This document shows positions 1-54,299 of a DNA stretch of 54,299 nt, one piece after another (the stretch's first letter is position 1; the number at the start of each line of letters is the position of its first letter). Under the pieces are notes generated by a model that worked only from the letters and a program-made list of their open reading frames with translations, did not search any database and was not told the DNA's origin. This stretch comes from a virus. The stretch is from IMG/VR virus record IMGVR_UViG_3300045933_000271, positions 1 to 54,299 of that record, one strand, 5' to 3'. A program made the position numbers and the translations under genes.

Positions 1-21
1 CCCAGCCGCCTCTCTCGCCAT
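1..21 (-). other. Start codon and first codons of the sigma-factor gene, reached across the contig junction
   Basis: Bases 1-13 repeat the last 13 bases of the window. When the ends are joined, the open frame upstream of the sigma gene at 54202 continues here and meets an in-frame ATG (bases 21-19 read on the minus strand), giving an N-terminus MAREAAGRRILCPQC. A purine-rich GGGGAGCGAGAG stretch lies just upstream as a possible ribosome binding site. Seen: the identity and the frame. Inferred: that the molecule is circular. Confidence 0.65.
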
Positions 22-1763: not shown

Positions 1764-1774
1764 CTTCTCCTCCT

Positions 1775-1891: not shown

Positions 1892-1915
1892 GAGTTCCTC
1901 CTCTCTCTCTGGCCG

Positions 1916-2083
1916 CTACTTCTTCGCCGGCTCGCGCGCGGCCTTCGCCGCCGGGCATTTCGCCTCGTGCCTGGATCCGCAGTTCTTGTTGTTGAAGCCG
2001 TAGGCCTGGTGGACCGGCGCGCTGCAGTAGGGGCATGTCGCGATGCAGCAGTCCCCGCACTCGATGCAGATCTTGATGGGCAT
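1916..2083 (-). CDS. Small Cys-rich zinc-binding-type protein, 55 aa
   Basis: A short protein with CIECGDCC, CPYC and later Cys/His residues (CGSRHEAKC), compatible with one or two zinc sites, and a basic C-terminus. Its ATG at 2083 overlaps the TGA of the preceding DUF3268-type gene (TGATG), so the two are translated together. No specific function is assigned. It belongs to a notable set of small zinc-ribbon-like proteins in this genome's early region. Confidence 0.65.
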   Translation of the reverse strand: MPIKICIECGDCCIATCPYCSAPVHQAYGFNNKNCGSRHEAKCPAAKAAREPAKK

Positions 2084-5388: not shown

Positions 5389-5432
5389 CTAGGGGCGCCC
5401 GCCCCGAAGGGAGGGCGCCCGAGGGCGGAACT

Positions 5433-5933: not shown

Positions 5934-5975
5934 GGCTTCAGTCCTTTCGTTTGAAAAAGAAGTAGAGATCGGTCA

Positions 5976-11755: not shown

Positions 11756-11844
11756 GGAGGGTTGACCGAACGGTAAGGAGCCCGGCTTTAGAACCGTGGC
11801 GACCGCCTAGCGGCGGTTTGGGGGTTCGAATCCCCCACCCTCCT
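11756..11844 (+). tRNA. Type II tRNA-like gene with an abnormal 8-nt anticodon loop
   Basis: Acceptor GGAGGGT/ACCCTCC (7 perfect pairs), Ser/Tyr-like D-arm with GGTAAGG, a long variable arm ACCGCC/GGCGGT with TAGC loop, and a perfect T-arm GGGGG-TTCGAAT-CCCCC. The anticodon arm is odd: CCCGG pairs with CCGTG with one mismatch (or with one bulged T) and leaves the 8-nt loop CTTTAGAA. Depending on register the anticodon would be TTA (reads UAA) or TAG (reads CUA, Leu). CCA is not encoded and position 73 is T. It is either a degenerate tRNA, a tRNA mimic or a decoding variant. Confidence 0.6.
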
Positions 11845-11863
11845 CAATCCGAATGGAGGATCG

Positions 11864-41329: not shown

Positions 41330-42894
41330 CCGAACACGCTCCCCTGGGGCGTGCCGAAGACCTCGTTGTCCTCGGGGCCGAGCATCTGGTCGGGGTCCAG
41401 GACCTCGGGATCGGGCTGGTCGGCCAGCCAGTTGTAACCCTGGGCGGCTCCGTCGATCATGTCGATGGGCTTCCCGCCGGGGAAGCGGCGGACCTGCTCG
41501 AGGAACTTCTCGTTCCAGTCGGCCTCGAGGAGGAAGACCTTGCCCGCGTGCGCGGCGGAGGCGAGGGGGTCGGCGCGGAGTTGCTTCGAACCTTCGTTGC
41601 CGGCAACGACGATGTGGGTGGAGTGACCGTCGAGCTTCTTCTCGATGGCCTCGGCCTGCGTCTTTCCTCCGGATCCGGGCTCCTGCTCGATGATGACGTC
41701 GATGCTCTTGCCGTCCGTCTTTGCGACCTGCTTGATTTCGGCGTCGCGCTCGCCGCTCGACCACCAATCGGCAACGATGTTCGTGATGTAGTACTCGCGG
41801 TCCTCGCCGATGCCGGTGAAGCCGATCTTGACGCCCGCCGTCTGGGCGGCCGACTTGTTCTTCGTGCCGGCCAGGTCCCAGGAGCGGCAGTAGCGGAGGT
41901 TCGCGGGGACCTGCTTCACGATCTTGAACCACGCGCTCTGGAACTCGCCTCCCTCGCGCGGGTAGGGCTGCTGGAGGTACATCGTGGCGAACCAAAAGGG
42001 GAGGGTGTTCTTCTGGCGCTTCTCCATCGTCGCCAGGCTGAACAGCTGCGGGCAGACGACGTCACCCTTCCTACGAGACCAGCCCAGGTCTTCTTTGCGG
42101 CCGTCGGGATGCTCGATGTGGAAGGCCTCGTCCTTGTCGGCGATCGCGGGCAGGATGAGCTCGGTCCACTTCTCGCCGCTCTCCTTCGCCGTCTGCTGAA
42201 TCCGCGCGACCAGGTCCTTATGGGACCAGCGCGTCATGACGACGATCTTGACGCCGCCTTCCTTGAAGCGGCTGGAGAAGACCGACTGGTACCAGTCGTG
42301 GATCTTCTCCAGGTGAGCTTCGGACGAGGCCTCCTCGGCGTTCTTGATCGGGTCGTCGATAATGCCGATGTCGACTGGCCGGCCGGTAAGCGGTCCGCCT
42401 ACGCCGGTCGTCACCATGCCGCCGCGGCGGAACTCTCCGCTCCTGAGGTCGTGGAGCTCCCAGTCGTCGGCTGCGCGCTTGTCCTGGCGGACTGTGATGC
42501 CGAATACCTCAGGTCCTACGGTTTCCATCAGATCGCGCACCGCGCGGCCCTTGTCGGAGGCGAACGTGGCCTCGTAGGACGATAGGGCGATGCACTTGTC
42601 GGGGAAGTTGCCGCAGATCCAGGCGGGGAAGTACTTCGACCAGAAGTCGCTCTTGCCGATCTGTGGCTGGATGCAGACGAGGAGGTTGAAGCCGACGCCG
42701 GCGAGCAGCGCGCCGGCGATCACCAGCGCGACGCGGTTGAACAGCGCCGTGTGCCTATACAGGACCCATTCCCCCTTACTGGCGAACATGCCGAGGTGTC
42801 CCGGCGTCCACGCTGCCTGACGCGAGTCGTTCAGCGCATCGAGCAAGAAGTTCTCGGCCTGCCTCGTCTGCGAGGAGTTTGCGAGCATTGCCAT
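41326..42894 (-). CDS. terL: Terminase large subunit
   Basis: 522 residues with ATPase and nuclease parts: Walker A QPQIGKS (76-82), Walker B IGIIDD (176-181), coupling motif VVMTRW (218-223), then an RNase H-like nuclease starting RSWDLAGT with Asp 340 and IIEQEPGSGGK with Glu 403. It packages DNA through the portal. The start at 42894 overlaps the TerS gene by 119 nt; no clear ribosome binding site is seen and a downstream ATG (42789) is an alternative. Confidence 0.9.
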   Translation of the reverse strand: MAMLANSSQTRQAENFLLDALNDSRQAAWTPGHLGMFASKGEWVLYRHTALFNRVALVIAGALLAGVGFNLLVCIQPQIGKSDFWSKYFPAWICGNFPDKCIALSSYEATFASDKGRAVRDLMETVGPEVFGITVRQDKRAADDWELHDLRSGEFRRGGMVTTGVGGPLTGRPVDIGIIDDPIKNAEEASSEAHLEKIHDWYQSVFSSRFKEGGVKIVVMTRWSHKDLVARIQQTAKESGEKWTELILPAIADKDEAFHIEHPDGRKEDLGWSRRKGDVVCPQLFSLATMEKRQKNTLPFWFATMYLQQPYPREGGEFQSAWFKIVKQVPANLRYCRSWDLAGTKNKSAAQTAGVKIGFTGIGEDREYYITNIVADWWSSGERDAEIKQVAKTDGKSIDVIIEQEPGSGGKTQAEAIEKKLDGHSTHIVVAGNEGSKQLRADPLASAAHAGKVFLLEADWNEKFLEQVRRFPGGKPIDMIDGAAQGYNWLADQPDPEVLDPDQMLGPEDNEVFGTPQGSVFG

Positions 42895-43417
42895 AGGATT
42901 CGTTGTGAGCGGCGGCGGTCGCGGCCGCGGTCGCCTGAGGGGTGTTGTTGATCACGATCCCCGCGGCCGCCGGCGTCATGCCGAGATAGGCGTGCTCGCC
43001 GCACCATTTGAGAAGCGAATCGTCCTTGTCGATGATCGACTTCGCGAAGGCGAGCGTGATGAGCAGCTGCTCGGCTTTCAGGTTGCGGATCCGGATCTTG
43101 TACTTCTTGAGCGCTTCCTTGCAGAGCTCGGGGTTGGCGCGGAAGGCCTCGAAGCCGCGGTTGAGCTGGGTGTTTCGGTTGACGATGCCGGGCGGACGGC
43201 CCTTCGGATTGAGCGTCCTGCCGGGCTTCATGCGCCCTTTCTCATCGCGGACGTCGGTGTCGACGACGATCAGGGGCTCGGGAGCTCCGGCCTCGGGCGC
43301 CGGCGAGGCGCTCGCGACCGGGGCCCCCGAGGGGGCCGCTACGGCGGACGGCAGCGACTCGGGTGCGGGATCGGCGTGGCCGTTCCCGTGATGGGTGGAT
43401 CCGTCGCTCGCGTCCAT
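42776..43417 (-). CDS. terS: Putative terminase small subunit
   Basis: 213 residues. The Ala/Pro-rich N-terminus is disordered; PGRTLNPKGRPPGIVNRNT is typical of TerS/DUF5681-like proteins and is followed by helices (LCKEALKKYKIRIRNLKAEQ). Its role would be recognition of the packaging site. It directly precedes TerL. ATG 43417 lacks a good ribosome binding site; a leaderless or later start is possible. Confidence 0.7.
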   Translation of the reverse strand: MDASDGSTHHGNGHADPAPESLPSAVAAPSGAPVASASPAPEAGAPEPLIVVDTDVRDEKGRMKPGRTLNPKGRPPGIVNRNTQLNRGFEAFRANPELCKEALKKYKIRIRNLKAEQLLITLAFAKSIIDKDDSLLKWCGEHAYLGMTPAAAGIVINNTPQATAAATAAAHNESYGNARKLLADEAGRELLARCAERLASGSVDAGTPRHVRQ

Positions 43418-43445
43418 GTGCCCGGGTTGTACATGGAAATGTGCC

Positions 43446-43451
43446 TGTCAA
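43446..43451 (-). promoter_or_regulatory. TTGACA box upstream of the late operon
   Basis: TTGACA (minus strand) lies 28 nt upstream of the TerS start. No matching -10 is evident at 16-18 nt, so promoter activity may depend on the phage sigma factor or an activator at the tandem repeats just upstream. Confidence 0.35.
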
Positions 43452-43470
43452 GGGGGTGGACGTGCCGGCG

Positions 43471-43500
43471 TGATGCTAGATGATGCGAGATGACGCTAGA
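43471..43500. repeat. Three tandem 10-bp repeats upstream of the terminase genes
   Basis: Units TGATGCTAGA, TGATGCGAGA and TGACGCTAGA follow each other without gap. The period is one DNA helical turn, so the same face is presented each time. Location in the gap between the early and late genes and next to terS suits a packaging (pac/cos) site for TerS or binding sites of a late activator. Confidence 0.65.
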
Positions 43501-43512
43501 ATAGTCGTCGTT

Positions 43513-43926
43513 TTAGCTTTTTTTCGACCCTGTATCCACCGCCTTCAGGGCCGCGCGGCAGATCGCGAGGGGAGCGGTCTCGGATCTTTCAGACCAATAT
43601 GCCGCGCCATCGCTCGGGTTGAGACTCAAGAAACCCGCCGCCCATTGCGCCGGTCGAGGCTTGCCGTCCTTCGTGTTCTTGTGAACCTGATCCAGCGAGA
43701 ACATGAATCTATCAGAGAGCTTCTCGACGACCTCCCAAGCCGCGGCGATGTCGGAGCTTGGGGCCCACATCTTTTCGAACATGAGGGACCGGCGGCGAGC
43801 GCGGACTTTCCCCTCCTGGTCGACCCAATAGATCCCGTTAACCGCGCTTTGCTTCCACCCCATCACCTTCTCGGCGACGAGCGCGTCGAGCTCCGGGCCG
43901 GGCGCCAGCTGGTCGACGTCGATCAT
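43513..43926 (-). CDS. Phage ABA-sandwich-domain protein
   Basis: 137 residues with PELDALVAEKVMGWKQ near the start, then FSLDQVHKNTKDGKPRPAQW and a C-terminal LNPSDGAAYWSERSETAPLAICRAAL. This series matches phage ABA sandwich domain (DUF2591-like) proteins, of unknown function and common in early/middle regions. Confidence 0.75.
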   Translation of the reverse strand: MIDVDQLAPGPELDALVAEKVMGWKQSAVNGIYWVDQEGKVRARRRSLMFEKMWAPSSDIAAAWEVVEKLSDRFMFSLDQVHKNTKDGKPRPAQWAAGFLSLNPSDGAAYWSERSETAPLAICRAALKAVDTGSKKS

Positions 43927-44156
43927 TAGCGAGCCTCAAAGTCTTCGCAGTTCTCGGCCGTCTTCATCTTACGCTCAAAGTCGGCCTGAGAATCGCCGCT
44001 GAAATCAAGATCCCAAATACCTTGCTGACATCCCATCGTCGCGTTATCTCCGGGAGTGACGTCGGAGTAGGACGGGGTCGAGCCAGTAAAGTTGAAGAAG
44101 CGACACGACCAGCAGACCATCCCGGGGCGGAGTTGCGCCTTACTATCCGCTGCCAT
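43926..44156 (-). CDS. Small Cys-containing protein, 76 aa
   Basis: GMVCWSCRFFNFTGSTPSYS, then TMGCQQGIWDLDFSGDSQAD and a late Cys. Four Cys suggest one zinc site. It abuts the ABA-sandwich gene (shared base at 43926). The family is not recognised. Confidence 0.55.
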   Translation of the reverse strand: MAADSKAQLRPGMVCWSCRFFNFTGSTPSYSDVTPGDNATMGCQQGIWDLDFSGDSQADFERKMKTAENCEDFEAR

Positions 44157-44162
44157 AAGCCC

Positions 44163-44387
44163 TCACGCGAAATAGAGCGTCTTGAGGATAACGATCTTCC
44201 CTCGAGGAAGAAAGACCGGCGAGCGGTCTGCAGAACCCCAGTGGGGCAGGACGATACGACGCTCCCTACACCAACGCTGCAGCGTCGCCTTGCTGACACC
44301 GACCTCGAAGGCCAGCGTCTTCCACGAGATTACGGCCTCCTCGCGTCTCACCTTGACGACGTCGAAGTCCAGCAGCTGATCCATCAT
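44163..44387 (-). CDS. Helix-turn-helix protein, excisionase-like size
   Basis: 74 residues from ATG 44387, with GGGAG 8 nt upstream. ISWKTLAFEVGVSKATLQRW fits a helix-turn-helix of the MerR/excisionase or HTH-17 type, followed by a beta-like wing (ILPHWGSADRSPVFLPRGKI). It could be an excisionase or a regulator of the nearby late region. Confidence 0.6.
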   Translation of the reverse strand: MMDQLLDFDVVKVRREEAVISWKTLAFEVGVSKATLQRWCRERRIVLPHWGSADRSPVFLPRGKIVILKTLYFA

Positions 44388-44430
44388 CCCTCTTTCTCCC
44401 ATCTCAACTGTCCCCCTACGTCCTCGCTTC

Positions 44431-44841
44431 TTACTCCCCCGCGTTCGCCCACACTGTGGCCATCGCTTCCAGCTCGTTGAGAATGACATCGGGCATCGTC
44501 AGCGTCTCTCGCTTCGCATCCACGAACTCCTTGAGCTGCAGCGCCAGGTCGGCCCTTGTGAAGTCGATCGTCACAGCAGTCCACCTGGCGCTGCAGTCCA
44601 GGCAAGCTCCGCGCTCAGGCCTGCCGGCGCATCGGCAACTGTCGGCTGCGCGCGCCAGATTGCGGTACGCTTCATGAAGATCCCGGCCACGGACCGACTT
44701 CACCTGATCCAGAGATAGATGCGTGGGCAGGGATACGGTCCGAAGCTTGCAGTCGCAGTCGAATTGGCTCCCCGGTGGAGCGATGAAAGTATCGTGAAAG
44801 CCGCACTGCGGACAGTAGACCTGGCTCCGATCGCTTCTCAT
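44431..44841 (-). CDS. Zinc-binding-type protein, 136 aa
   Basis: The start at 44841 has GGAGG at ideal distance. YCPQCGFHDTF and CDCKLRTVSL form an N-terminal zinc ribbon; a second Cys cluster (CRCAGRPERGACLDC) follows and a helix ends the protein. A DNA- or RNA-binding role is plausible. The palindrome copy at 44891-44906 is about 50 bp upstream, where a regulator could act. Confidence 0.6.
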   Translation of the reverse strand: MRSDRSQVYCPQCGFHDTFIAPPGSQFDCDCKLRTVSLPTHLSLDQVKSVRGRDLHEAYRNLARAADSCRCAGRPERGACLDCSARWTAVTIDFTRADLALQLKEFVDAKRETLTMPDVILNELEAMATVWANAGE

Positions 44842-44890
44842 GAATCCTCCGCGGTGTTCTACCGCTTGAGGAATCGTAGCTCGAGTCATG

Positions 44891-44906
44891 TGCATACGTC
44901 TGCACT
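44891..44906. repeat. Copy of the 16-bp palindrome, 15/16 (site 3)
   Basis: GTGCATACGTCTGCAC differs from the perfect copy at position 6 only. It lies in the gap upstream of the zinc-binding gene that starts at 44841, touching the stop of the preceding membrane-protein gene. Confidence 0.65.
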
Positions 44907-45091
44907 CACCTCAAATGCGATCCATGCTTCGTCAGGTACCAGGAGAGCACCGCCATGCCGGCGATCACGAGCGCGATCAGGAGCGACAGGCCCAGGATCG
45001 TCCGCCACCGCTCCTGCCGGCGGATCGCCTCGGGGATGTCTTCCAGGAAGGCCTCGTCGTCGCCGTCGTCGGGTTTCCATTCGGGGCTCAT
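44906..45091 (-). CDS. Small membrane protein, 61 aa
   Basis: Acidic N-terminus (DDGDDEAFLEDIPEAIRRQE) followed by one membrane span (ILGLSLLIALVIAGMAVLSW) and a short basic tail. It overlaps the next gene by 4 nt. The role is unknown. Confidence 0.6.
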   Translation of the reverse strand: MSPEWKPDDGDDEAFLEDIPEAIRRQERWRTILGLSLLIALVIAGMAVLSWYLTKHGSHLR

Positions 45092-45315
45092 GGGATCCTC
45101 GTCAGCTTTCCGGTTTCCAGATCTCTCCGAAAGAGCGGCTTCGTGCCGCCGTGCTCCATTGCCAGATGCGCGACGATCTTGGCCTCAACTTCCTCGATGG
45201 TCGTGATTGGGGATTGCCAGAAGCAGAGGTAGCAGCCGACCGAGTCGTGGTCGTTCCAGCCATAGGCGTCCGGATCCGTAGCGCGGCCCTCTTCCCATTC
45301 CTGTCGTGTCTTCAT
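45088..45315 (-). CDS. Small protein with C2H2-like Cys/His spacing, 75 aa
   Basis: GCYLCFWQSPITTIEEVEAK and then HLAMEH, giving Cys-x2-Cys-x19-His-x4-His, close to a zinc-finger spacing but with a longer linker. It overlaps both neighbours by 4 nt. Compare the sigma factor's C2H2 elements in the same genome. Confidence 0.6.
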   Translation of the reverse strand: MKTRQEWEEGRATDPDAYGWNDHDSVGCYLCFWQSPITTIEEVEAKIVAHLAMEHGGTKPLFRRDLETGKLTRIP

Positions 45316-45689
45316 CGAAAGCCCTCTCCGCGCGCTGGCGGGAAGAGGTCGTCGAGGGCGTCAGGCTTACACATGGGGATGGGCTTAGCCTGGCCGGTCG
45401 CCTCGAGCCAGGCTTGATGACGTAGTTCCTTCTGGTGGCGCTCGTGATTCCGCTCGGCGGTCAGATCCTCCACGCGCTTCCGCAGGTTGTCGATCTCGAC
45501 GTTGGCCGAGAAGAGAGCATCGCCCAGACCCTGGACGCCCATGCCCTCAAGCTCAGCAACTTCGGCGGCCGCGCGCAGCCGACGCACCTCGGCGACCAGG
45601 CGCATCCCCCAGTCGCGATCGCTCTGCCACGACGAAAGGCCGTTCTGGATCTCGTCGAGCTCCAAGTCGGTGATCGGCTTCGTCTCCAT
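45312..45689 (-). CDS. Coiled-coil protein, 125 aa
   Basis: LELDEIQNGLSSWQSDRDWG, VRRLRAAAEVAELEGMG, DNLRKRVEDLTAERNHERHQ indicate long helices with heptad features. It overlaps its neighbours by 1-4 nt. It resembles Ead/Ea22-like helical phage early proteins; no function assigned. Confidence 0.55.
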   Translation of the reverse strand: METKPITDLELDEIQNGLSSWQSDRDWGMRLVAEVRRLRAAAEVAELEGMGVQGLGDALFSANVEIDNLRKRVEDLTAERNHERHQKELRHQAWLEATGQAKPIPMCKPDALDDLFPPARGEGFR

Positions 45690-46195
45690 CAGGCCGTCAC
45701 CTTCCGGTCCGGATCCAGCTTGCCGAGCTCGGCGTCGAGTTGCTTGCGGAGCTGCTCGAGGCTGGTGTCGAGCTTGGAGATCTCCAGGTCCCGGACGTTG
45801 AGCTCGCCGGCGCGCTCCTGGCCGAGATCTTCGAAGGCTCCTGCGATCGCCGCCAGGTCCTCGCGCGCCTTGGCCTCGACGGCCTCGAGGCGGGCATCCC
45901 GATCCTTGGCCGCCTGGCGAAGCTCGTTCTCGATCTCCACGCTGCGGCGCAGCTTCACGGCGACGAGGGTCGCACGCAGCTCGCGCCGCTGATGGATAGC
46001 CTCGATGAGCTTTTGCGACCGCAGGACCTGCTCGGGGAGCATCGGCTTCTCGGGCTCCTTCTTCGGCTTCTCGAGCTTCTTGGTCTCGACGTCGGCCTGC
46101 GCGACGGTCTTGAGCACTTCCCCGGGGGCCGCCGCCATGGGATGCTCAATCGTGTTCATCAGCAAGTCCGCCACCTGTTCCACGCGATCGCTCAT
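45689..46195 (-). CDS. Coiled-coil protein, 168 aa
   Basis: A Lys/Glu-rich helical protein (LEKPKKEPEKPMLPEQVLRS, LRRSVEIENELRQAAKDRD, LDTSLEQLRKQLDAELGKLD). The second ATG (46195) is chosen as it is 8 nt from AGGAG; the first ATG (46201) is only 2 nt away. The family is not recognised. Confidence 0.6.
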   Translation of the reverse strand: MSDRVEQVADLLMNTIEHPMAAAPGEVLKTVAQADVETKKLEKPKKEPEKPMLPEQVLRSQKLIEAIHQRRELRATLVAVKLRRSVEIENELRQAAKDRDARLEAVEAKAREDLAAIAGAFEDLGQERAGELNVRDLEISKLDTSLEQLRKQLDAELGKLDPDRKVTA

Positions 46196-46219
46196 GCCCA
46201 TCTCTCCTAAAACAATGTC

Positions 46220-46342
46220 CTACTTGAACTCGTCGCACCCGCACTTCTGGCAGCCCACGAGCGGCAGGTGGTACATCACCGAATGCCCGCAGTTGTCGCA
46301 GTCGCCGATCAGCCACTTCCACAACTTGCCAAGCGTCTTCAT
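46220..46342 (-). CDS. Tiny zinc-ribbon protein, 40 aa
   Basis: DCDNCGHSVMYHLPLVGCQK with CGC at the end forms Cys-x2-Cys ... Cys-x2-Cys, a rubredoxin-knuckle-like mini ribbon. The ATG overlaps the previous stop (ATGA). A short but well-structured gene. Confidence 0.6.
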   Translation of the reverse strand: MKTLGKLWKWLIGDCDNCGHSVMYHLPLVGCQKCGCDEFK

Positions 46343-46665
46343 GGCCGTCTCCTCACTCGATTCACCCGATGCACCACGACCGTCACGCGCATGTCGTCGT
46401 ACGGCTCCACCCAACCCTTGCCCCTGCAGCGCCAGCAGCTGGACGGGCAGTGGTCCCACTCGACGCCGCTCCACTCCGGGCAGACCTGGAAGAGCTCCGG
46501 CTCGCACCAGCAGTCCAGGTTGTCGACCTGGTGCTCGGCGGGCGGCCGGTAGTAGCGCTGCTCCTGGGGCTCGGGCTGTGAACGGCGGCGTGCGAGGGAC
46601 CGGATCATGAGAGCCACGATGGCCGCGAGCAGGAGGAGCTGGACTGCCGCGAGGTAGTGATTCAT
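46339..46665 (-). CDS. Membrane-anchored Cys-rich protein, 108 aa
   Basis: An N-terminal membrane segment (YLAAVQLLLLAAIVALMIR) is followed by a basic linker and a Cys/Trp-rich domain (LDCWCEPELFQVCPEWSGVE, CPSSCWRCRGKGW) with six or seven Cys. The topology suggests a membrane-tethered zinc or disulfide domain. It overlaps the mini zinc-ribbon gene. Confidence 0.6.
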   Translation of the reverse strand: MNHYLAAVQLLLLAAIVALMIRSLARRRSQPEPQEQRYYRPPAEHQVDNLDCWCEPELFQVCPEWSGVEWDHCPSSCWRCRGKGWVEPYDDMRVTVVVHRVNRVRRRP

Positions 46666-46668
46666 GGG

Positions 46669-46869
46669 TCAGAAGGGGAGCACCACTCCCGTCTTGCCGC
46701 TCGCCGTCGCGATCTTCTCGATGCACTCGCGCGAGCACGCATCCTGCGGACCGTCTTCGTCCTGGCGCTGGAACCAGGAGCTCGGCTTGAACCAGCCGGC
46801 TCCGCCGTTCCGGACGTACTCCGCGGACGCGCGCTTTCCGCAACCGTCGCAGATGAATTCGCAGGCCAT
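46669..46869 (-). CDS. Small zinc-ribbon protein, 66 aa
   Basis: ACEFICDGCGKRASAEYVRN and ACSRECIEKIA, giving Cys-x2-Cys ... Cys-x3-Cys. ATG 46869 follows AAAGGAG. It abuts the membrane-anchored gene. No family is recognised. Confidence 0.6.
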   Translation of the reverse strand: MACEFICDGCGKRASAEYVRNGGAGWFKPSSWFQRQDEDGPQDACSRECIEKIATASGKTGVVLPF

Positions 46870-46892
46870 GTCATGTGCTCCTTTCGGTTGAA

Positions 46893-47129
46893 TTACGAAA
46901 CCTTCGCCCGCTTCTCCCACTCCTCCAAGATGCGGGCGAACAGGCCACAGGACACCTGCTCGAACTCCGCGATAGTCATGCCCGGAGGCACCCACCTGAA
47001 GAGGAACTCGTTGCAGGCCACCTTGCAGTTCTCCTTGTTAGCCCGCTCGACGGCATCGAGAGTCGCCTCCTCCGTGCCGGTCGATGTGAAGAGCGGAATC
47101 GCCTCCGCTCGCTCCTTGGTGCTGTTCAT
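46893..47129 (-). CDS. Hypothetical protein, 78 aa
   Basis: MNSTKERAEAIPLFTSTGTE, then CKVACNEFLFRWVPPGMTIA and FARILEEWEKRAKV. Mixed helical, two or three Cys. It is the first gene after the HerA-like gene. The family is not recognised; the gap upstream (47130-47265) shows nothing notable. Confidence 0.5.
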   Translation of the reverse strand: MNSTKERAEAIPLFTSTGTEEATLDAVERANKENCKVACNEFLFRWVPPGMTIAEFEQVSCGLFARILEEWEKRAKVS

Positions 47130-47265
47130 TCGCTTTCTCCTTTGCGTTCAATCCTCGTTACCAAATCCCATCCCAGTTCGGGCCGGGCTCCGGTCTCTGT
47201 TGCGGGAGAGAATGGAACAGCGTGCCCGGCCCGACAGCTGGGGTGGGGTATTAGGGCGTTGGGAA

Positions 47266-49044
47266 TCAAGCGTCTCTCCCTTCCGCGAACAGCCACGCGG
47301 CCGCGCGGGCCCGCCCCTTGCCGGTGATTTCGAGCATCCCCGCGGTCTTGAGGGTGCTCATGTTCTTCTCGAAGCCGCTCGAGGTGACCGTCGTGCCGGA
47401 CCTGGCTGCAATCTCCTCGCGCGAGAGGTCGTGAGGGTAAACCTGGATCAGGTTGTTCAGGATGCAGCTCTGCGGCGTCGAGATCGCCGCGGTGCACTTC
47501 TGGATGAGCAGCTCGTGGGTCGGCGCCGGCTGATCACCGACTTCGCCACGCCCGGGCGAGAGGATCCGGAGCATGCCGGGCCCGCCCGTCTCGAGGTAGC
47601 CGCCGGTCTTGAGCGTCGAGACGTTCTTCTCGAAGCCGCTGGACTTGTGGGTCGTATCGGCAAGTGGCGCGATCCACGTGCGCGGCACCTCGCTGAAGCC
47701 CAGGGCCTCGAACATGGCCAGGGCCTGGAGGATCCGGAGCTGGGGACGGGAGACGGTGGTGTCGCGGGTCTCCTGGTCCTTCGGCGCCAGGAGTGCAGAC
47801 GTCTGCAGTTGGTGGATCGCCTCGACCGGCTGGGGCTGAGGCTTTGCCCGGATGCCTGCCGACGGCATCGGCGTCAAGACCGGCTCGGGCCGGCGGGCCC
47901 GCTGCTCGATCTTCTTCACCTGATCCTGGAGCAGATCGGAGAAGCCGCGCAGCGTGATCGCGACGTTGTTGCACTTGCCGGCGGCCATCACGGCGTTCGC
48001 CATGGCCTTCTCCAGGCGGACCAGCTGCGCGGGCGGGATCACCGGGACCTCGACCCGAACGGGTTTCGAGGGGGCCGGGAGGGGAGTGGGGACCTCCTTC
48101 GGCCTGGAGGCGAGTTGGGCCTTGAGGGAGCGGATCTCGGTGCGCATCGCGATCTCCGTCATCAGCTTCTCCTCGGCCTCCTTGGGCAGGTCCGCCAGCT
48201 TGGGCAGCAGGGCCCGGATCTTCTCCGGCGCCGGCGGCGGAGTGTCCGAGATCTCGGAGCCGACTTCCGGGTGCGTGGTTTGGACGGGCCCGACCGAGAG
48301 CAGGATCCGGTCGTTCGCGATCGCCGGGCCCATGGCGTAGAACTCGCCGGGCTCGCGCTTCTTGATCTCGACCCGGAACTCGTCCCGCTCGTCGCGCGAG
48401 ACGCTGAGGACCTCGACGGCCCGGTCGATGTCCACGCCCTCGCGCGTCATGCCGACCAGGCGGTTGAGCAATTCGGCCGTCACCGTCTTCGAGATCTTGG
48501 CCAGGCGCTGGGTGAAGGGGACGAGGCAGATCCCGCGCTTCCGGCCGCGCGTCGCGGCATCCTGCACGGCGCCGAAGGCCTCGCTCTCGCCCATCCCCTT
48601 CTCGGGACAGAAGACGTGCGCCTCGTCCAGCATGACGACGAGCGGGCGCCACAGGCTCTTGGGCAGGTTCATCAGGGCCTCGAGGAACGCCCGGACCCAC
48701 GCGTGGCGCGTGGGCGGCTTCAGGTCGTAGAGGTCGAAGACCGCGGAGGCCTGGAGCTCCCGGAGCTTGTGGGCCACGAGCGGCGCCGTCCGCGGATCCG
48801 CCGGCGTCTCGCCGCCCTTGCCGACCAGTACGAAGCCATACTTTTCGCGCAGCGTGGCGAACTCACCCTCGGGGTCGATGATCCAGACGGGTACCTTCCC
48901 GAAGAGCTGCTCGGCCAGGCGCCGCAGGAGCCAGGACTTGCCGCCGCCGGAGTTCGCCGTCACCAGCGCGCGCGAGCGCAACAGCACCGCCAGGTCGAGG
49001 TGGACCGGGTGCCGGCCGGTCCGCCCGATCTCGATTTTCGCCAC
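47266..49044 (-). CDS. HerA/FtsK-like ATPase with tandem C-terminal winged-helix repeats
   Basis: 592 residues from GTG 49044, with AAGGAGG 8 nt upstream. Walker A ANSGGGKS (30-37), Walker B VVMLDEAH (136-143) and CLVPFTQRLAKISKTVT are the HerA/DUF87 translocase pattern. After a Pro-rich, partly coiled linker come two copies of a winged-helix-like unit, SSGFEKNVSTLKTGGYLE (468-485) and SSGFEKNMSTLKTAGMLE (555-572). It probably acts as a DNA translocase with a duplicated DNA-binding tail. A palindrome copy lies inside the linker region. Confidence 0.8.
   Translation of the reverse strand: MAKIEIGRTGRHPVHLDLAVLLRSRALVTANSGGGKSWLLRRLAEQLFGKVPVWIIDPEGEFATLREKYGFVLVGKGGETPADPRTAPLVAHKLRELQASAVFDLYDLKPPTRHAWVRAFLEALMNLPKSLWRPLVVMLDEAHVFCPEKGMGESEAFGAVQDAATRGRKRGICLVPFTQRLAKISKTVTAELLNRLVGMTREGVDIDRAVEVLSVSRDERDEFRVEIKKREPGEFYAMGPAIANDRILLSVGPVQTTHPEVGSEISDTPPPAPEKIRALLPKLADLPKEAEEKLMTEIAMRTEIRSLKAQLASRPKEVPTPLPAPSKPVRVEVPVIPPAQLVRLEKAMANAVMAAGKCNNVAITLRGFSDLLQDQVKKIEQRARRPEPVLTPMPSAGIRAKPQPQPVEAIHQLQTSALLAPKDQETRDTTVSRPQLRILQALAMFEALGFSEVPRTWIAPLADTTHKSSGFEKNVSTLKTGGYLETGGPGMLRILSPGRGEVGDQPAPTHELLIQKCTAAISTPQSCILNNLIQVYPHDLSREEIAARSGTTVTSSGFEKNMSTLKTAGMLEITGKGRARAAAWLFAEGRDA
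47793..47808. repeat. Copy of the 16-bp palindrome, 15/16 (site 4), inside a gene
   Basis: GTGCAGACGTCTGCAG; the inner 14 bp are perfectly symmetric. It lies within the linker-coding part of the HerA-like gene, where it would block elongation if bound by a repressor, as stoperators do. Confidence 0.65.
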
Positions 49045-49141
49045 CGCCGAACCTCCTTCCGGGCCTGATTTGGCCCTGTTCATGCAAGCCGCCGTAGTCA
49101 TCACAAAAAATGTCAAACTCAGAATTCCCGTCACATCAGGT

Positions 49142-49259
49142 CGTCTCATTTTTCGCCTCGTATCTCGTCCCATCCCTTCCCTATTCCTAAAGGGATGGGA
49201 CGTGAGACGGTCTCTTGTTCCAAGGTCCAAGTCACAAGAGACGAGTTCTTGAGACGAGT
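49142..49259. repeat. Cluster of inverted and direct GAGACG repeats, candidate origin or control region
   Basis: A perfect 13-bp inverted repeat, CGTCCCATCCCTT (49166-49178) with AAGGGATGGGACG (49190-49202), is framed by CGTCTCA (49142-49148) and TGAGACG (49203-49209). A 9-bp inverted repeat, GTCTCTTGT with ACAAGAGAC, and two direct copies of GAGACGAGT (49238-49246 and 49251-49259) follow. It lies between the helicase and HerA-like genes. Iteron-like; role in replication or regulation inferred. Confidence 0.6.
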
Positions 49260-50749
49260 CATTTCTCACCAGAAACCGCCATATTCAGCCGGTAGAACGT
49301 GGCGTTCCCACGGACTACGGCTGAGATGGCCAGGGATTCCTGAAGGGCCTTGAGATGCCTGTAAACTTGGGCTCTGGAAAGCCCCTGATCGTCCATGACG
49401 GCGACAATCTGCTTGCCTGGGACTTCGCCGCCACCGATCGCCGCGGAGGCCTCTTGGAGGGCCTTGAGGACCCCTTCCGACCCGCCGCCGCGCTTCTTCT
49501 TGTTCGACTCCTGCTCGCGGATCTCCCAGCGGACCGACTCGTCAGGCTGGCGGATGTACTCGATCTCCCACTTCGCCCGGTAGTCGAACTTCGAGGTGAT
49601 GGACACGGGCGTAACGTCGCTGTCGCCGCGGTCGCCCCAGTCGATGATGGAGACCGGAGCGGCGCCGATCGCAGTCGACCCGCGGCCACGCTCCGACATC
49701 GAAACGCCTTCGCCGTTCTTCCTCCGATGGTGCACGTACAGGATCGCGCAGCGGCAGTTGCGGGCGATGCGCTGGAGGACCTGCATCACCAGCTTGATCT
49801 CGGAGGCCTTATCCTCGTCGACGCCGTGGGCGTGGCTGATGGTGTCCAGGACGACCAGGTCGTACCGCTCGGCACTGATCTTGTCCTCAAGCGCCCGGGC
49901 GTGCTCGGCCACGTTCATGAGGAGGAGCGGCATCTCGGTGACGTGCATGTTGGGCGGGATGCCGTTCGAGCCGAGGCCTCGCGCGTAGGAGAGGATCCGC
50001 TTCGAGATCAGGGGAAGCATGTCCTCCCAGGTGATGTAGAAAACCTTCTGCGGCTTGCTCTGGAGGAGTGCGCCCGTGGGCCAGGTCCCGATGCTGGTGG
50101 CGACGCCGAGGAAGAGCGTGAAGCTCGATTTGCCCCCCTTGGGCGGACCGTGGATCTGGGTGAGGTAGCCGCGGGGGACGATCGGGTCGACCACGTACTC
50201 GAGGGGCGTCTCCGCCGCCCTGAGGAGCTGCTCGCCGTGAACCACCTGGGAACCCGTGATCTCCTCCCAGGTCTTCTTCTTCGCGGTCTGGACGATGTCC
50301 GTGGCTTCGACGGAGGCGAGGGCCAGCTCCTCGAGCTCGCCGTTCAGGTCCTCACCCTTGACGACCAGGTCGTTGATCTGCCGGATGAGCCGGAGCGCCT
50401 TCCGCCGGCTGGCCAGGCGCACCACGCCTTTCGCGTAGCTCTCCACATGGTCGGGATTGGGGAGCTCCTGGAGCAGATCCATGAGCGCCTGGGCGCCGCC
50501 GACCTCGGCCAGCTTGCCCGTGGCGGCGAGCTCGCCGTGGAGCATGGGCAGATCGCACTGGGCCGTGCGGCCCAGAACCGTCTCGAGCGCGGCCAGGATC
50601 GTCCGGTGCTGGGGAATGACGAACGGCTCCCAGCCGCGGGTGATCTCCTTCGAGATCTTGAACCGCTCCGCCTGGCGCTCGTCGGCCCAGATCAGGGAAC
50701 CGACGAGCCCCTTCTCCTGGACTACGGCAGGGTCCTGTTGGTCTGCCAC
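49259..50749 (-). CDS. DnaB/RepA-like replicative helicase
   Basis: 496 residues. DnaB N-terminal-like helices (residues about 5-130, EKGLVGSLIWADERQAERF, LAEVGGAQALMDLLQELPNP) are followed by a RecA-like core with Walker A GPPKGGKSSF (201-210), Walker B YDLVVLDTISHAHG and CAILYVHHRRKNGEG. A C-terminal winged-helix-like region (VAVMDDQGLSRAQVYRHLKA) is added. It probably unwinds DNA at the phage origin; the array just downstream could be its loading site. Confidence 0.85.
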   Translation of the reverse strand: MADQQDPAVVQEKGLVGSLIWADERQAERFKISKEITRGWEPFVIPQHRTILAALETVLGRTAQCDLPMLHGELAATGKLAEVGGAQALMDLLQELPNPDHVESYAKGVVRLASRRKALRLIRQINDLVVKGEDLNGELEELALASVEATDIVQTAKKKTWEEITGSQVVHGEQLLRAAETPLEYVVDPIVPRGYLTQIHGPPKGGKSSFTLFLGVATSIGTWPTGALLQSKPQKVFYITWEDMLPLISKRILSYARGLGSNGIPPNMHVTEMPLLLMNVAEHARALEDKISAERYDLVVLDTISHAHGVDEDKASEIKLVMQVLQRIARNCRCAILYVHHRRKNGEGVSMSERGRGSTAIGAAPVSIIDWGDRGDSDVTPVSITSKFDYRAKWEIEYIRQPDESVRWEIREQESNKKKRGGGSEGVLKALQEASAAIGGGEVPGKQIVAVMDDQGLSRAQVYRHLKALQESLAISAVVRGNATFYRLNMAVSGEK

Positions 50750-50792
50750 GTTGCCTCTCTCTCCATCCGATCTCTCTCTTCCGTCTTCTCTC

Positions 50793-51266
50793 TCAACTCG
50801 TGTGCGCGTGATAGATCGCCATGCCGGCCGCGTCTGCCGCGTCGAGCGGCGGATCGAAGTCGAGGTCGAGGATCCGCTTCACGGCGTTGGCGACCTCGAT
50901 CTTGTGGGCGTTGCCCTTGCCCGTGATGCGCTTCCAGGTCTGCGGGGAGTACTCGTGGAACTGGAGCTCGGCGCCGCCGACCAGCGCCAGGCAGATCGCC
51001 CGGACGCCGGCGATCGCGAGCGTCGCCATGTGGTTCTTGTTCACGAACGGCCGCTCGACGACGCATTCCGCGTTCTTCTCGCGGGCCTGCTCGAGGATGG
51101 GGATCAGCTCGCCCATCACCTGGGCCAGGCGCCGGTGGAGCGGGCCCTCCCGCATCACGATCGTGCCCATCGCCTGGGCTCGGTAGAGCCCAGGACGACG
51201 GACGTCGATCAGCGCGTAGCCGGCGAACTGGGTGCCGGGGTCGAGACCGAGGACGAAGCGGGACAT
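50793..51266 (-). CDS. RuvC-like Holliday junction resolvase
   Basis: 157 residues with FVLGLDPGTQFAGYALID (Asp 9), AECVVERPFVNKN (Glu 71), and DPPLDAADAAGMAIYHA (Asp 142, Asp 145), the four acidic residues of RuvC nucleases, and TGKGNAHK between. It would resolve recombination or replication junctions before packaging. The start overlaps the preceding stop (TAATG). Confidence 0.85.
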   Translation of the reverse strand: MSRFVLGLDPGTQFAGYALIDVRRPGLYRAQAMGTIVMREGPLHRRLAQVMGELIPILEQAREKNAECVVERPFVNKNHMATLAIAGVRAICLALVGGAELQFHEYSPQTWKRITGKGNAHKIEVANAVKRILDLDFDPPLDAADAAGMAIYHAHTS

Positions 51267-51613
51267 TACTCGGCCGCCTCGCCGGCGTCGCCTTCCTCGG
51301 CCTGGACCTGGTCCTCGTCGGTGACGCGGACCCGCTTCACCTTCCGCTTCCCCTCGGTGCGGCGGAAGATCGTGTTGCCCAGGCGGTACTCGGGGATCTT
51401 GTGCTTCTCCATGAGGGTCAGGAGGCCGTCGTGGAGCTTGACCTCTTCCTTCGTCATCTCCATCCGCTCCTTGACCTTCGCGTCCCACTTGTTGGCCGCG
51501 TCCTCGACCTCCTGGACCTTCTTGATCGGGCCGCCCGCCTTGCCCTTGGTCAGGCCGGGAAGTCTCGACTGCTTGAGCTTCCGCAGGCCTTCGCCTTTTT
51601 TCTCTTCCGCCAC
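51266..51613 (-). CDS. Basic helical protein, 115 aa
   Basis: From GTG 51613, preceded by GGAGG at good spacing. SRLPGLTKGKAGGPIKKVQ, EEVKLHDGLLTLMEKHKIPE and YRLGNTIFRRTEGKRKVKRV, with an acidic end. It may bind nucleic acid, as it is coupled to the resolvase gene (TAATG). The family is not recognised. Confidence 0.6.
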   Translation of the reverse strand: MAEEKKGEGLRKLKQSRLPGLTKGKAGGPIKKVQEVEDAANKWDAKVKERMEMTKEEVKLHDGLLTLMEKHKIPEYRLGNTIFRRTEGKRKVKRVRVTDEDQVQAEEGDAGEAAE

Positions 51614-51626
51614 TGAAATCCTCCTT

Positions 51627-51863
51627 TCAATCGAACTTGGTTCTGCAGGCGGGACAATACGCACGCCTGCTCGTTTCCCTGGATGCACCGACCTTCACCT
51701 TCTGGTCGCCCTGGCCCACGACGCGCGCGGGCAGCAGCTCCGTCTTGTCGATGGAGATCCACCGCTCCGGAGGCGAGGGAAGGAGCTCGGCCGCGCGCGG
51801 GCCGGTCTGCATCTCGACCAGGCCGCAGCCGTCGCACTTCCATTCCCTCGCCGGCGTCATCAT
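51627..51863 (-). CDS. Zinc-ribbon protein, 78 aa
   Basis: REWKCDGCGLVEMQ at the start and YCPACRTKFD at the end give two Cys pairs enclosing a beta-rich middle. It overlaps the next gene (ATGA). No specific function. Confidence 0.6.
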   Translation of the reverse strand: MMTPAREWKCDGCGLVEMQTGPRAAELLPSPPERWISIDKTELLPARVVGQGDQKVKVGASRETSRRAYCPACRTKFD

Positions 51864-52168
51864 GCTTCCTTCTGCACGGTCCCCGGCCGCATGCTGGTCT
51901 TACCCTGGACTGCCGCCCACCAGTTACAGGCCGCGGCCGCGACCGTGATGATCCGGTGGAGCTTCTTCTCCCGGTTGCCGCCCGGGTTGTGGAGCGCCTT
52001 GCCGGCGAGGTAGCCGATCAGCCAGAACCAGTCGGCGCAGGTCTTGCCGGCGTCTCCCTTCTCGGCCCAGCGGTCGCGCTGATACGCGGCCTCCTTCTTC
52101 ACGGCCTCGAAGAAGTCCTCGATCTCGGGCGTCCCGAGCTCCTTCCTGCATGGTTCGCAGAGGTTCAT
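51860..52168 (-). CDS. Conserved phage protein with Trp-rich helix, 102 aa
   Basis: CEPCRKELGTPEIEDFFEA, then YQRDRWAEKGDAGKTCADWF, WLIGYLAGKALHNPGGNREK and HRIITVAAAACNWWAAVQG. This series (DWFWLIGYLAGKAL ... HHIITxAAAxxNW) is common among phage and metagenomic proteins of unknown function. Starts ATG 52168, 4 nt after its neighbour. Confidence 0.7.
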   Translation of the reverse strand: MNLCEPCRKELGTPEIEDFFEAVKKEAAYQRDRWAEKGDAGKTCADWFWLIGYLAGKALHNPGGNREKKLHRIITVAAAACNWWAAVQGKTSMRPGTVQKEA

Positions 52169-52171
52169 GCC

Positions 52172-52477
52172 CTAGCCCTCCGCTCCGTTGTCGGCCACAT
52201 GATGGTGCTCGTACTTCTCGAGGATCTTCCGGGCGTCGTCGAACATCGCCGGCGTGAACCCCAGCGCGTGGGCGATGTAAGCCAGCACGTTCGCCCGGTT
52301 GTGCCAGCAGGCCTCGCCGGCGGGAGACCTGGCGCAGCCCTTGTCCTCATGCTGGCCCGCCGCCTCGAAAGCCCAGCGCTTGGTCATCTGGATGGCAACG
52401 TGCTCGCGCGCCCCCGGGTCCACGTCCTCGAGGAGCTCCGGGATCCGCTTGAGCTGTGTGTTGCAGTCATCGCACAT
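52172..52477 (-). CDS. Hypothetical protein, 101 aa
   Basis: MCDDCNTQLKRIPELLEDVD, CWHNRANVLAYIAHALGFTP, FDDARKILEKYEHHHVAD. The start Cys pair and His-rich end could bind metal. ATG 52477 overlaps the Xre-type stop (TGATG). The family is not recognised. Confidence 0.6.
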   Translation of the reverse strand: MCDDCNTQLKRIPELLEDVDPGAREHVAIQMTKRWAFEAAGQHEDKGCARSPAGEACWHNRANVLAYIAHALGFTPAMFDDARKILEKYEHHHVADNGAEG

Positions 52478-52818
52478 CAGACGGCCTCCTTCGTCGGCGC
52501 CGCCGGTGCCACGACCTGGCTCTCGTCGCTCTTGGCCTTGGCCTCCTCCTCGCGGAGCTTGGAGAGCAGCTCGTGGGCCGCGATCGTGGTCACGCCCTTG
52601 GGCGCCTTCTCCCACCAGGCGAGCGCGAGCATCTCCGAGAGCGGGAGCTCGAGGTGCCGGCAGAGCAGGGGGATGATCTTCGGCGACGGCGCGTTCACCT
52701 TGCCGTTCTCGATGCCCGAGATGTATCCCTTGTGGGACTTCACCGCCTTCGCGGCTCTCTCCAGGGTCCAGCCTTTCGCTTTGCGCGCGTCCTTGACGCG
52801 CTGTCCGAACGTCAGCAT
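52477..52818 (-). CDS. Xre/Cro-CI-type HTH regulator
   Basis: 113 residues. FGQRVKDARKAKGWTLERAA, KAVKSHKGYISGIENGKVN and PLLCRHLELPLSEMLALAW are the HTH_3 pattern of lambda-CI/Cro-like proteins, with a C-terminal Lys/Glu/Pro-rich tail in place of a protease/dimerisation domain. It sits next to the sigma-factor gene. Candidate ligand of the operators near 8.5 kb; not proven. Confidence 0.8.
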   Translation of the reverse strand: MLTFGQRVKDARKAKGWTLERAAKAVKSHKGYISGIENGKVNAPSPKIIPLLCRHLELPLSEMLALAWWEKAPKGVTTIAAHELLSKLREEEAKAKSDESQVVAPAAPTKEAV

Positions 52819-52858
52819 GTTTGGGTCTCCTTAGATTCAGTTCTGGATCCGTTTGCTC

Positions 52859-54202
52859 TTAGGGAAGGTCAGGGTCTTCCTCGACGCTGCCGTCGTTATC
52901 CCGGCGCGGGCGCCTCGAAGGCTTCCCCCCCCCCTCGTCCTTCGCCTTCTCGATGGCGGCGATCGCGCGGTCGATCTCCCCCAGCTCGGGGATCTGGGCG
53001 AGCAGCTCGCTGCGCCTGGCCGTCAGCGCGTTGAGCGCGATGTCGAAGCCCCTGGCCGCGCCGTTCGAATGCTGCTTCACCGCCAGCCTGGCCCGTCGCG
53101 CGGCCGCGGGGCCCTTGGGCTTGCGGCCGCGCCTGGGCTTCGCCTGGCCCGGGTGCTCATGCCGCCGATGAGCCCCGAGCGCCTGCGGGTTCTTGAATTC
53201 CATCCCCGGGCACTTCTCGCACTTGAGATCCGCCACGATCGCCTCCTTCGCCACATCCGCCACCACATCGGCCTCCACCGCGGCGACAGGCGCCGAGCCG
53301 TCGCAGAGCGCGATGGAGCCGTTCCGTCCTTCTCGTTTGCCGTTGGGAGTGAATTGCATTCCGAACCTCCCCGCCCGGGTCGCGCCGGCGAGGAGCGTGC
53401 CGTGGACGTGGTGCCGCCTCTTGAGGATGGCCAACGCCTTGTGCTCGACCTGCCGGACCCGTTGACGGCTGACACCGATTTCCTGGCCGACCTCGTCGAG
53501 GGTGCGGGGCACCTTGCCGTCGAGACCGTAGCGACGAACGAGAATCAGCTTCTCACGATTGCTCAGCCCGATGAGGATGCCAGCGAGCTCCTCCTTCGCG
53601 AGGACCTGGTCGGGCTCCTCCGGAGCTGCCAGAAGGCTCGCGATCGTATTGTCGCCGTCGCTGCTCGCGGCCACCTGGTCCATGCTGACCGTCCGCGCGG
53701 ACGACCTGGCCAGGACCAGGTCGAGGGTTCCTCGACCGATCTTGAGCTCCTTCTCGATGTCCTCCGGTTGCCAGCCGTCGAGCAGAAGCTTCCGGGCCTT
53801 GCTGATGTTCGCGCGCACGCCCTCGGGAACCGCGACCACGTGGGCCTGGTGCGAGTACCGCATGAGGAATTGCCGGATCCACCAGATGGCGTAGGTGGAG
53901 AACCTGAAGCCTTTCGACGGGTCGAAGAGCTCGGCCGCTCGGATCAGGCCCAGGTTGCCTTCCTGGATCAGGTCCATCTCGCGCGAGCGGTTGTGGGCGC
54001 GACGCTTCCGGACGAGGGATACGACCAGCCGAAGATTACTCTCGACGAGGAGCTTCTTGGCGTCGTCTGCCCTGGGTCCGTCGGCCTGGATCAGCCTCCC
54101 GAGTGCGACCTCTGCCTCGTGCGTCAGGAGACTACGCCCGGCCGATTCCTGACAGTACGCCTCGATCTGGTCGCGGCTCTTGCCGATCGGCTCACCGCTC
54201 AC
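52859..54202 (-). CDS. Sigma-70-family factor with C-terminal C2H2 zinc finger and AT-hook-like segment
   Basis: 447 residues from GTG 54202, longer across the contig junction. Region 2 (LLVESNLRLVVSLVRKRRAH, MDLIQEGNLGLIRAAELFD, GFRFSTYAIWWIRQFL), region 3 and region 4 (LSNREKLILVRRYGLDG, DEVGQEIGVSRQRVRQVEHK) form a full RpoD-like core. After that comes a zinc finger with Cys 328, Cys 331, His 345 and His 350 (FKNPQALGAHRRHEH), an AT-hook-like RRGRKPKGP and a helical tail. A run of ten G (plus-strand C, 52925-52934) lies near the 3' end. A strong candidate for switching transcription to late genes. Confidence 0.9.
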   Translation of the reverse strand: MSGEPIGKSRDQIEAYCQESAGRSLLTHEAEVALGRLIQADGPRADDAKKLLVESNLRLVVSLVRKRRAHNRSREMDLIQEGNLGLIRAAELFDPSKGFRFSTYAIWWIRQFLMRYSHQAHVVAVPEGVRANISKARKLLLDGWQPEDIEKELKIGRGTLDLVLARSSARTVSMDQVAASSDGDNTIASLLAAPEEPDQVLAKEELAGILIGLSNREKLILVRRYGLDGKVPRTLDEVGQEIGVSRQRVRQVEHKALAILKRRHHVHGTLLAGATRAGRFGMQFTPNGKREGRNGSIALCDGSAPVAAVEADVVADVAKEAIVADLKCEKCPGMEFKNPQALGAHRRHEHPGQAKPRRGRKPKGPAAARRARLAVKQHSNGAARGFDIALNALTARRSELLAQIPELGEIDRAIAAIEKAKDEGGGKPSRRPRRDNDGSVEEDPDLP

Positions 54203-54299
54203 CCGAGCATGCCGGTCCAGAAGATGGATGCCAAGCCTCTCGATGGAGCCGGTGTCTTCCTTGCACTGAGGGCAGAGAATCCGCCGCCCAGCCGCCTCT
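54203..54299 (-). CDS. N-terminal zinc-finger extension of the sigma factor (open to the window edge)
   Basis: The frame of the sigma gene stays open upstream of GTG 54202 to the end of the window and encodes ILCPQCKEDTGSIERLGIHL, then DRHARV. Cys-x2-Cys-x12-His-x4-His is the canonical C2H2 spacing. Joined with the other end of the window, it starts at ATG bases 21-19. If real, the sigma factor carries zinc fingers at both ends. Confidence 0.6.

What the first reader, a model, noticed from the sequence alone, without database searches (positions are those of the whole stretch)
52859..54299. Sigma-70 factor bracketed by two C2H2 zinc fingers plus an AT-hook-like segment
The core is RpoD-like with regions 2 to 4 intact. 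Upstream, the frame encodes Cys-x2-Cys-x12-His-x4-His; downstream it encodes a finger with QALGAHRRHEH, close to the QALGGH type known mainly from eukaryotes, then RRGRKPKGP. Sigma factors normally read DNA through regions 2 and 4 only; added sequence-specific fingers could anchor RNA polymerase at special phage promoters or at an enhancer-like site. I know of no described sigma factor of this layout.
Basis: partly seen in the sequence, partly recalled or inferred. Interest (0 to 1): 0.9.

Follow-up and report, generated by a model that had tools for sequence, protein, structure and literature searches.

The report
Phage sigma factor inserted between zinc-fingers
In one phage genome a bacterial-style transcription initiation (sigma) factor has been spliced in frame into an older phage zinc-finger protein; related phages still carry that finger protein without the sigma part, so the fusion looks real, but it is known from one genome and its function is untested.

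Summary
The minus-strand gene (52859-54299, running over the contig join to an ATG at +21) encodes 482 aa: a C2H2 finger, a sigma-70 core (regions 2 and 4 over Pfam cut-offs), a QALGAH-type finger, a basic patch and a coiled coil. The decisive new fact lies in relatives. The gene next to ParB in two other phage contigs (L098, L099) is a ~200-aa three-finger, coiled-coil protein with NO sigma domain. An HMM of those two matches both ends of the window protein (E 2.6e-21) and skips the sigma core. Synteny and a 13-bp end overlap indicate a circular contig. So a sigma core was inserted in frame between finger 1 and a now decayed middle finger of a phage finger protein; it is not a sigma factor that gained fingers. 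None of the 80 closest sigma factors in IMG/VR has fingers. Residues for core binding and DNA melting are kept; extended -10 contacts are lost. Most likely it is a self-anchored phage sigma factor, the fingers holding host polymerase at phage promoters; that step is inferred. A 10-bp tandem array upstream of the terminase operon, here and in L098's phage, is a candidate target (rival: packaging site).

The parts
52859..54299 (-). Finger-sigma fusion gene, main part (482 aa joined protein; stop at 52859)
   Evidence: Open frame; Sigma70_r2 and r4 over Pfam cut-offs; phrog_351 sigma factor E 1.7e-58
1..21 (-). Start of the same gene over the contig join: ATG at plus 19-21, MAREAAGRR...
   Evidence: 13-bp exact end overlap and in-frame ATG; ParB-to-finger-gene synteny in L098 and L099
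54209..54274 (-). Finger 1, CPQC-x12-H-x4-H (residues 12-33)
   Evidence: Homologous to finger 1 of L098 and L099, blastp E 5e-5 and 8e-5; strand-strand-helix in the AF2 model, pLDDT about 45-62
53411..54175 (-). Inserted sigma core, part of region 1.2 to region 4.2 (residues 45-299)
   Evidence: Best PDB sequence match RpoS 7vf9_F E 1.3e-39; Foldseek hits sigma in RNAP complexes E 3e-15; residue check against E. coli RpoD
53858..54049 (-). Sigma region 2 (core binding, -10 recognition, melting)
   Evidence: Pfam PF04542, 62.5 bits; D403, Q406, N409, F427, Y430, W433, W434, Q437 equivalents kept
53420..53569 (-). Sigma region 4 (-35 recognition)
   Evidence: Pfam PF04545, 47.3 bits; R584, R588, Q589 equivalents kept, E585 is Q
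53276..53374 (-). Decayed middle finger and ALCDGSAPVAAV linker
   Evidence: 49% identity to L098 over 51 aa, E 5e-11, with Cys-Cys-His lost; 86% DNA identity over 50 bp
53153..53221 (-). Finger 3, CEKC-x13-H-x4-H, QALGAH type (residues 363-385)
   Evidence: 77% DNA identity to L099 over 96 bp; beta-beta-alpha with pLDDT 66-78
53108..53134 (-). Basic patch RRGRKPKGP (AKPRRG shared with L099)
   Evidence: Alignment A7
52934..53050 (-). C-terminal coiled coil
   Evidence: Long helices in both models; aligned with L098 and L099
186..1778 (-). ParB-like gene immediately upstream in the circle
   Evidence: Pfam ParB_N E 3.6e-29
52477..52818 (-). Xre-type HTH gene immediately downstream
   Evidence: Pfam HTH_3 E 2e-11; 84% DNA identity to the L098 phage
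43471..43500 (-). Candidate target: three tandem decamers TCTAGCGTCA, TCTCGCATCA, TCTAGCATCA upstream of the terminase operon
   Evidence: Only period-10 triple array in the window; 0 in 20 codon shuffles; link to the fusion protein is inference
43427..43451 (-). TTGACAGGCACATTTCCATGTACAA, -35-like and imperfect palindrome
   Evidence: Shared with the L098 phage at the same place, absent from the sister phage G001

Best explanation
Shown: the gene is an in-frame fusion in which a primary/group-2-like sigma-70 core sits between finger 1 and the middle finger of a ParB-linked phage protein made of three zinc fingers and a coiled coil; the middle finger is decayed, while fingers 1 and 3 and the coil are kept. 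Inferred: the product binds host core RNA polymerase through its intact region 2.2 and melts promoters as a normal sigma does, but gets part of its promoter address from the two fingers and the basic patch, which hold the polymerase at phage sites. It would act as an activator and a sigma factor in one chain, used for phage genes downstream of the replication block, such as the terminase and structural operon.
For: Finger proteins without sigma stand in the same place next to ParB in two phages, and no sigma region 2 was found in those records. An HMM of them matches the window protein at both ends, E 2.6e-21, with the sigma core unmatched between. DNA homology of 77-86% remains on the 3' side. 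Flanking genes are 80-87% identical to the L098 phage: exonuclease 83%, helicase 80%, DnaB-like 87%. None of the 80 closest sigma factors in viral contigs has a finger pattern. Core-binding and melting residues are conserved; extended -10 residues H455 and E458 and -10 contact T440 are replaced. Finger 3 is predicted as beta-beta-alpha with homologues in the alignment. A 10-bp tandem array lies upstream of a TTGACA element before the terminase operon here and in the L098 phage, both with finger proteins, and not in sister phage G001, in which no C2H2 pattern was found.
Against: One genome only; no second fused copy in IMG/VR, isolated phages, plasmids or the genome collection under the searches possible. 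Two fingers are few for strong specific binding, and a middle finger was lost. Finger 1 is modelled with low confidence, and finger 3 only when homologues are supplied. What the unfused finger protein binds is unknown. The decamer arrays of the two phages differ in sequence and may be packaging sites.
Confidence: 0.55

Rival explanations
1. The sigma core works as an ordinary phage sigma factor, and the finger scaffold is a passive remnant or only serves folding and dimerisation.
For: Region 2 and 4 DNA-contact residues are largely kept; the middle finger has already decayed; finger 1 is weak by Pfam; sister phage G001 has a plain FliA-like sigma without fingers.
Against: All eight ligands of fingers 1 and 3, the AKPRRG patch and the coil survive although the middle finger was lost, which suggests selection.
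Confidence: 0.22
2. The fingers are a regulatory or protein/RNA-binding module, for example an on-board switch that responds to metal or redox, or a contact to ParB or host proteins.
For: Metal-binding C-terminal domains switch other sigma factors on or off: CorE, CorE2, OrbS, ECF52 (PMC9023288, PMC8999054, PMC5826349). The gene sits next to ParB in all three phages.
Against: The ligand spacing is the classical C2H2 type with QALGxH, followed by a basic patch, not the Cys-rich or anti-sigma types; the finger protein exists without sigma, so it did not arise as a sigma switch.
Confidence: 0.17
3. The fusion is an assembly chimera of a sigma gene and a finger gene.
For: A single metagenomic contig; no read data available here.
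Against: Two junctions would both have to fall in frame within one gene; sequence beside the 3' junction is homologous but has already changed at Cys and His positions; third-position GC is high throughout the gene, 0.74 at the 5' end to 0.91 at the 3' end.
Confidence: 0.05

Closest known systems
Phage-encoded sigma-70 factors (PHROG 351; surveyed in PMC9429907)
   Same: Sigma regions 2 and 4, predicted use of host core RNA polymerase
   Different: None of the 80 closest in IMG/VR has a finger pattern or a long C-terminal extension
ParB-linked three-finger phage protein of L098 and L099 (described here, unnamed)
   Same: Finger 1, linker, finger 3, basic patch (L099), coiled coil, place next to ParB
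   Different: No sigma core; middle finger intact there, decayed in the window
ECF sigma factors with metal-binding extensions: CorE/CorE2, OrbS, ECF52 (PMC9023288, PMC8999054, PMC5826349)
   Same: Sigma factor and metal-binding domain in one chain
   Different: Those are ECF types with C-terminal Cys-rich or anti-sigma zinc domains that switch activity; here the core is RpoD/RpoS-like and bracketed by C2H2 fingers
QALGGH C2H2 fingers of plants (e.g. SUPERMAN, cited in PMC6483171)
   Same: QALGxH helix start in finger 3
   Different: x13 between second Cys and first His, G-to-A change, prokaryotic virus context

Membership tests
Sigma-70 family | Sigma70 region 2 over the Pfam cut-off | tested here: met
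   62.5 bits against 24
Sigma-70 family | Sigma70 region 4 over the Pfam cut-off | tested here: met
   47.3 bits against 24.1
Sigma-70 family | Core-binding (2.2) and melting residues conserved | tested here: met
   D403, Q406, N409, F427, Y430, W433, W434 equivalents present
Group 1 (RpoD) sigma | Region 1.1 and full region 3 with extended -10 residues | tested here: not met
   No region 1.1; H455 and E458 positions are G and A; region 3 shortened
Sigma-70 family | Binds core RNA polymerase and starts transcription | not testable with these tools
   Needs biochemistry
C2H2 zinc finger | C-x2-C-x12/13-H-x3-5-H ligands | tested here: met
   Two matches; none of 200,000 shuffles has two
C2H2 zinc finger | Pfam C2H2 model over cut-off | tested here: not met
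   Window finger 3 at 18.5 bits against 27; its homologue in L099 passes at 27.6
C2H2 zinc finger | Beta-beta-alpha fold | tested here: inconclusive
   Finger 3 predicted with pLDDT 66-78 when two homologues are given, not without them; finger 1 predicted at low confidence
C2H2 zinc finger | Zinc binding | not testable with these tools
   Needs metal analysis
AT-hook | R-G-R-P core | tested here: not met
   Sequence is RRGRKPKGP; L098 lacks the patch
ParB-linked three-finger phage protein | Fingers 1 and 3, coiled coil and ParB neighbour | tested here: met
   HMM E 2.6e-21; gene order
ParB-linked three-finger phage protein | Intact middle C-x3-C finger | tested here: not met
   Both Cys of the pair and the His are replaced
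ECF sigma with zinc anti-sigma or Cys-rich domain | ECF core and Cys-rich or anti-sigma zinc C-terminal domain | tested here: not met
   Core is RpoS/RpoD-like; the extensions are C2H2 fingers

The most novel reading that the evidence does not exclude
A sigma factor with its own sequence-specific C2H2 DNA-binding module: an activator and a sigma factor joined in one phage protein, in which an upstream finger-binding array replaces part of the usual -10/-35 recognition.
Probability: 0.3. Interest if true: 0.85.

Novelty: new variant of a known kind. Interest (0 to 1): 0.62.

Why it matters
Sigma factors choose promoters through regions 2 and 4, and activators normally help from a separate protein. 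A natural fusion, with the unfused ancestor-like protein still present in sister phages, gives a before-and-after pair to test whether promoter choice can be moved to an added DNA-binding module. It also shows classical QALGxH-type C2H2 fingers as a native part of a phage protein family.

Tried and rejected
Exact-peptide scans with the whole protein: no relative in viral contigs; four hits in genome contigs were ordinary RpoD proteins. A DNA pattern for finger 1 plus sigma at the same spacing gave one chance hit inside an unrelated ORF of L097. tblastn in plasmids with the N-terminal part and in phages with the C-terminal part: nothing; the finger protein of L099 has no convincing relative in phages or plasmids. 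Scans with ParB, the finger alignment, DnaB and the helicase found no second fusion. Alignments that mixed sigma rows with finger rows were misaligned and not used for folding. Promoter and terminator scans of 40000-54299 gave close to chance numbers. The AT-hook reading was rejected. The host could not be determined. A phylum-wide search was not possible with the handle given. Literature searches found no sigma factor with C2H2 fingers among open papers; subscription papers are not covered.

Full report
What is there. The window is a 54,299-base IMG/VR virus record with a tailed-phage gene set: terminase, major head protein, integrase, ParB, DnaB-like and Sak4-like genes. Its ends share 13 bp exactly. 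Joined, the minus-strand frame 52859-54298 gains an ATG at plus 19-21 and reads 482 residues: MAREAAGRRIL-CPQC...H...H, sigma core, linker, CEKC...H...H, RRGRKPKGP, coiled coil. Finger 1 lies wholly inside the linear contig, so it does not depend on circularity.

Is it more than chance. Both sigma domains pass the Pfam cut-offs. Two C2H2 patterns never occurred in 200,000 shuffles of the protein, one occurred in 0.04%, and no other called ORF of the window has the pattern. Finger 3 alone is weak in Pfam (18.5 bits), but its homologue in L099 passes (27.6 bits).

The key evidence. Direct searches for the whole protein found no relative with fingers. A search with the neighbouring ParB gene did better. 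In L098 (IMGVR_UViG_3300010400_000058) and L099 (IMGVR_UViG_3300044472_000050) the gene right after ParB is a protein of about 200-215 residues with three zinc fingers and a coiled coil, and no sigma domain. No sigma region 2 was found in either record, though the L098 record is only 20,962 bases long. A profile of these two proteins finds the window protein among 12,876 frames at E 2.6e-21; the C-terminal match alone is 8.3e-19, and finger 1 matches with a conditional E of 3e-5. The sigma core, about residues 45-299, is not matched. At DNA level the intergenic stretch before the gene (83%), the ALCDGSAP linker (86%, L098), finger 3 with AKPRRG (77%, L099) and the next gene (84%) align, and the sigma core does not. 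Flanking replication genes are 80-87% identical between the window and the L098 phage, while the structural genes match another phage, G001, at up to about 84%. The window is therefore a mosaic, and its finger gene has most likely taken in a sigma core since it parted from L098's lineage. The reverse, loss of a sigma core in L098 and L099, is less likely because the middle finger is intact in both and decayed only in the window, but three sequences cannot exclude it.

The sigma core. The best sequence match of known structure is an RpoS (7vf9_F, E 1.3e-39), and Foldseek returns sigma subunits of polymerase complexes. Against E. coli RpoD the residues of region 2.2 that bind the beta' subunit (D403, Q406, N409) and the melting residues (F427, Y430, W433, W434) are kept; these roles are from general knowledge of sigma-70. 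Q437 is kept and T440 is Met. The extended -10 residues H455 and E458 are Gly and Ala. In region 4, R584, R588 and Q589 are kept and E585 is Gln. Such a protein should bind core polymerase and may read promoters differently from RpoD. That is inference.

The fingers. AlphaFold2 on the full protein with 47 sigma homologues gives a confident sigma core, strand-strand-helix at finger 1 with pLDDT about 45-62, and no fold at finger 3. With the two finger homologues in the alignment, finger 3 forms strand-strand-helix at pLDDT 66-78. The fold is thus supported for finger 3 and suggestive for finger 1.

A possible target. Upstream of the terminase operon, on the minus strand at 43500-43471, are three tandem decamers (TCTAGCGTCA, TCTCGCATCA, TCTAGCATCA), then TTGACAGGCACATTTCCATGTACAA and the start codon. 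It is the only period-10 triple array of the window at this threshold, with none in 20 shuffles. The L098 phage has a period-10 array of different sequence at the same place before TTGACAGGCACATTTGCCTGTAA, the only such array in its 21 kb. Sister phage G001, in which no C2H2 pattern was found, has neither. This fits a binding array for the finger protein. A packaging site next to the small terminase gene fits as well, and the palindrome could be an operator for the Xre protein. The array was found after the fact, so it is a lead and not a test.

How it most likely works. Shown: the fusion architecture, its origin within a finger gene, and conservation of sigma and finger residues. Inferred: the protein recruits host polymerase through the sigma core while the fingers and basic patch hold it at phage DNA; the coil may make it a dimer. 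Sister phage G001 carries an unrelated FliA-like sigma in its early region, which suggests that this phage group gains from its own sigma factors and has acquired them more than once.

What is known. Sigma factors with metal-binding extensions exist: CorE, CorE2, OrbS and ECF52, but these are ECF types in which the metal domain switches activity. Searches of the open literature found no sigma factor with C2H2 fingers. I rate it a new variant of a known kind, the phage sigma factor, with a single example.

Limits. One genome, no reads, host unknown, no unrestricted metagenome search, and no biochemical evidence for any step.

Noticed in passing
L005:4105-4740 (G001, IMGVR_UViG_3300010401_000010): The sister phage (123-bp identical ends; structural genes up to about 84% identical) carries a FliA-like sigma factor without fingers in its early region.
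   Followed up: partly
window 43427-43500; L117:16259-16350: Period-10 tandem arrays followed by a TTGACA palindrome directly upstream of the terminase operon, in the window and in the L098 phage but not in G001; either a regulatory array or a packaging site.
   Followed up: partly
window 11756-11845: tRNA-like gene with an undetermined, four-base anticodon call (ttag) about 1.6 kb from the integrase (9049-10116).
   Followed up: no
window 186-7097 and 47266-52818 against 18365-42894: Mosaic genome: the replication half matches the L098 phage (mostly 76-87%), most of the structural half matches G001 at 75-84%.
   Followed up: partly
L098:6413-7493: Between the finger gene and the Xre gene the L098 phage holds a DUF1643 gene and other small ORFs that the window lacks, so this is a variable slot.
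   Followed up: no
window 47266-49269: HerA/DUF87-type ATPase conserved at 72-76% in both relatives, next to the DnaB-like gene; role in the phage unclear.
   Followed up: no
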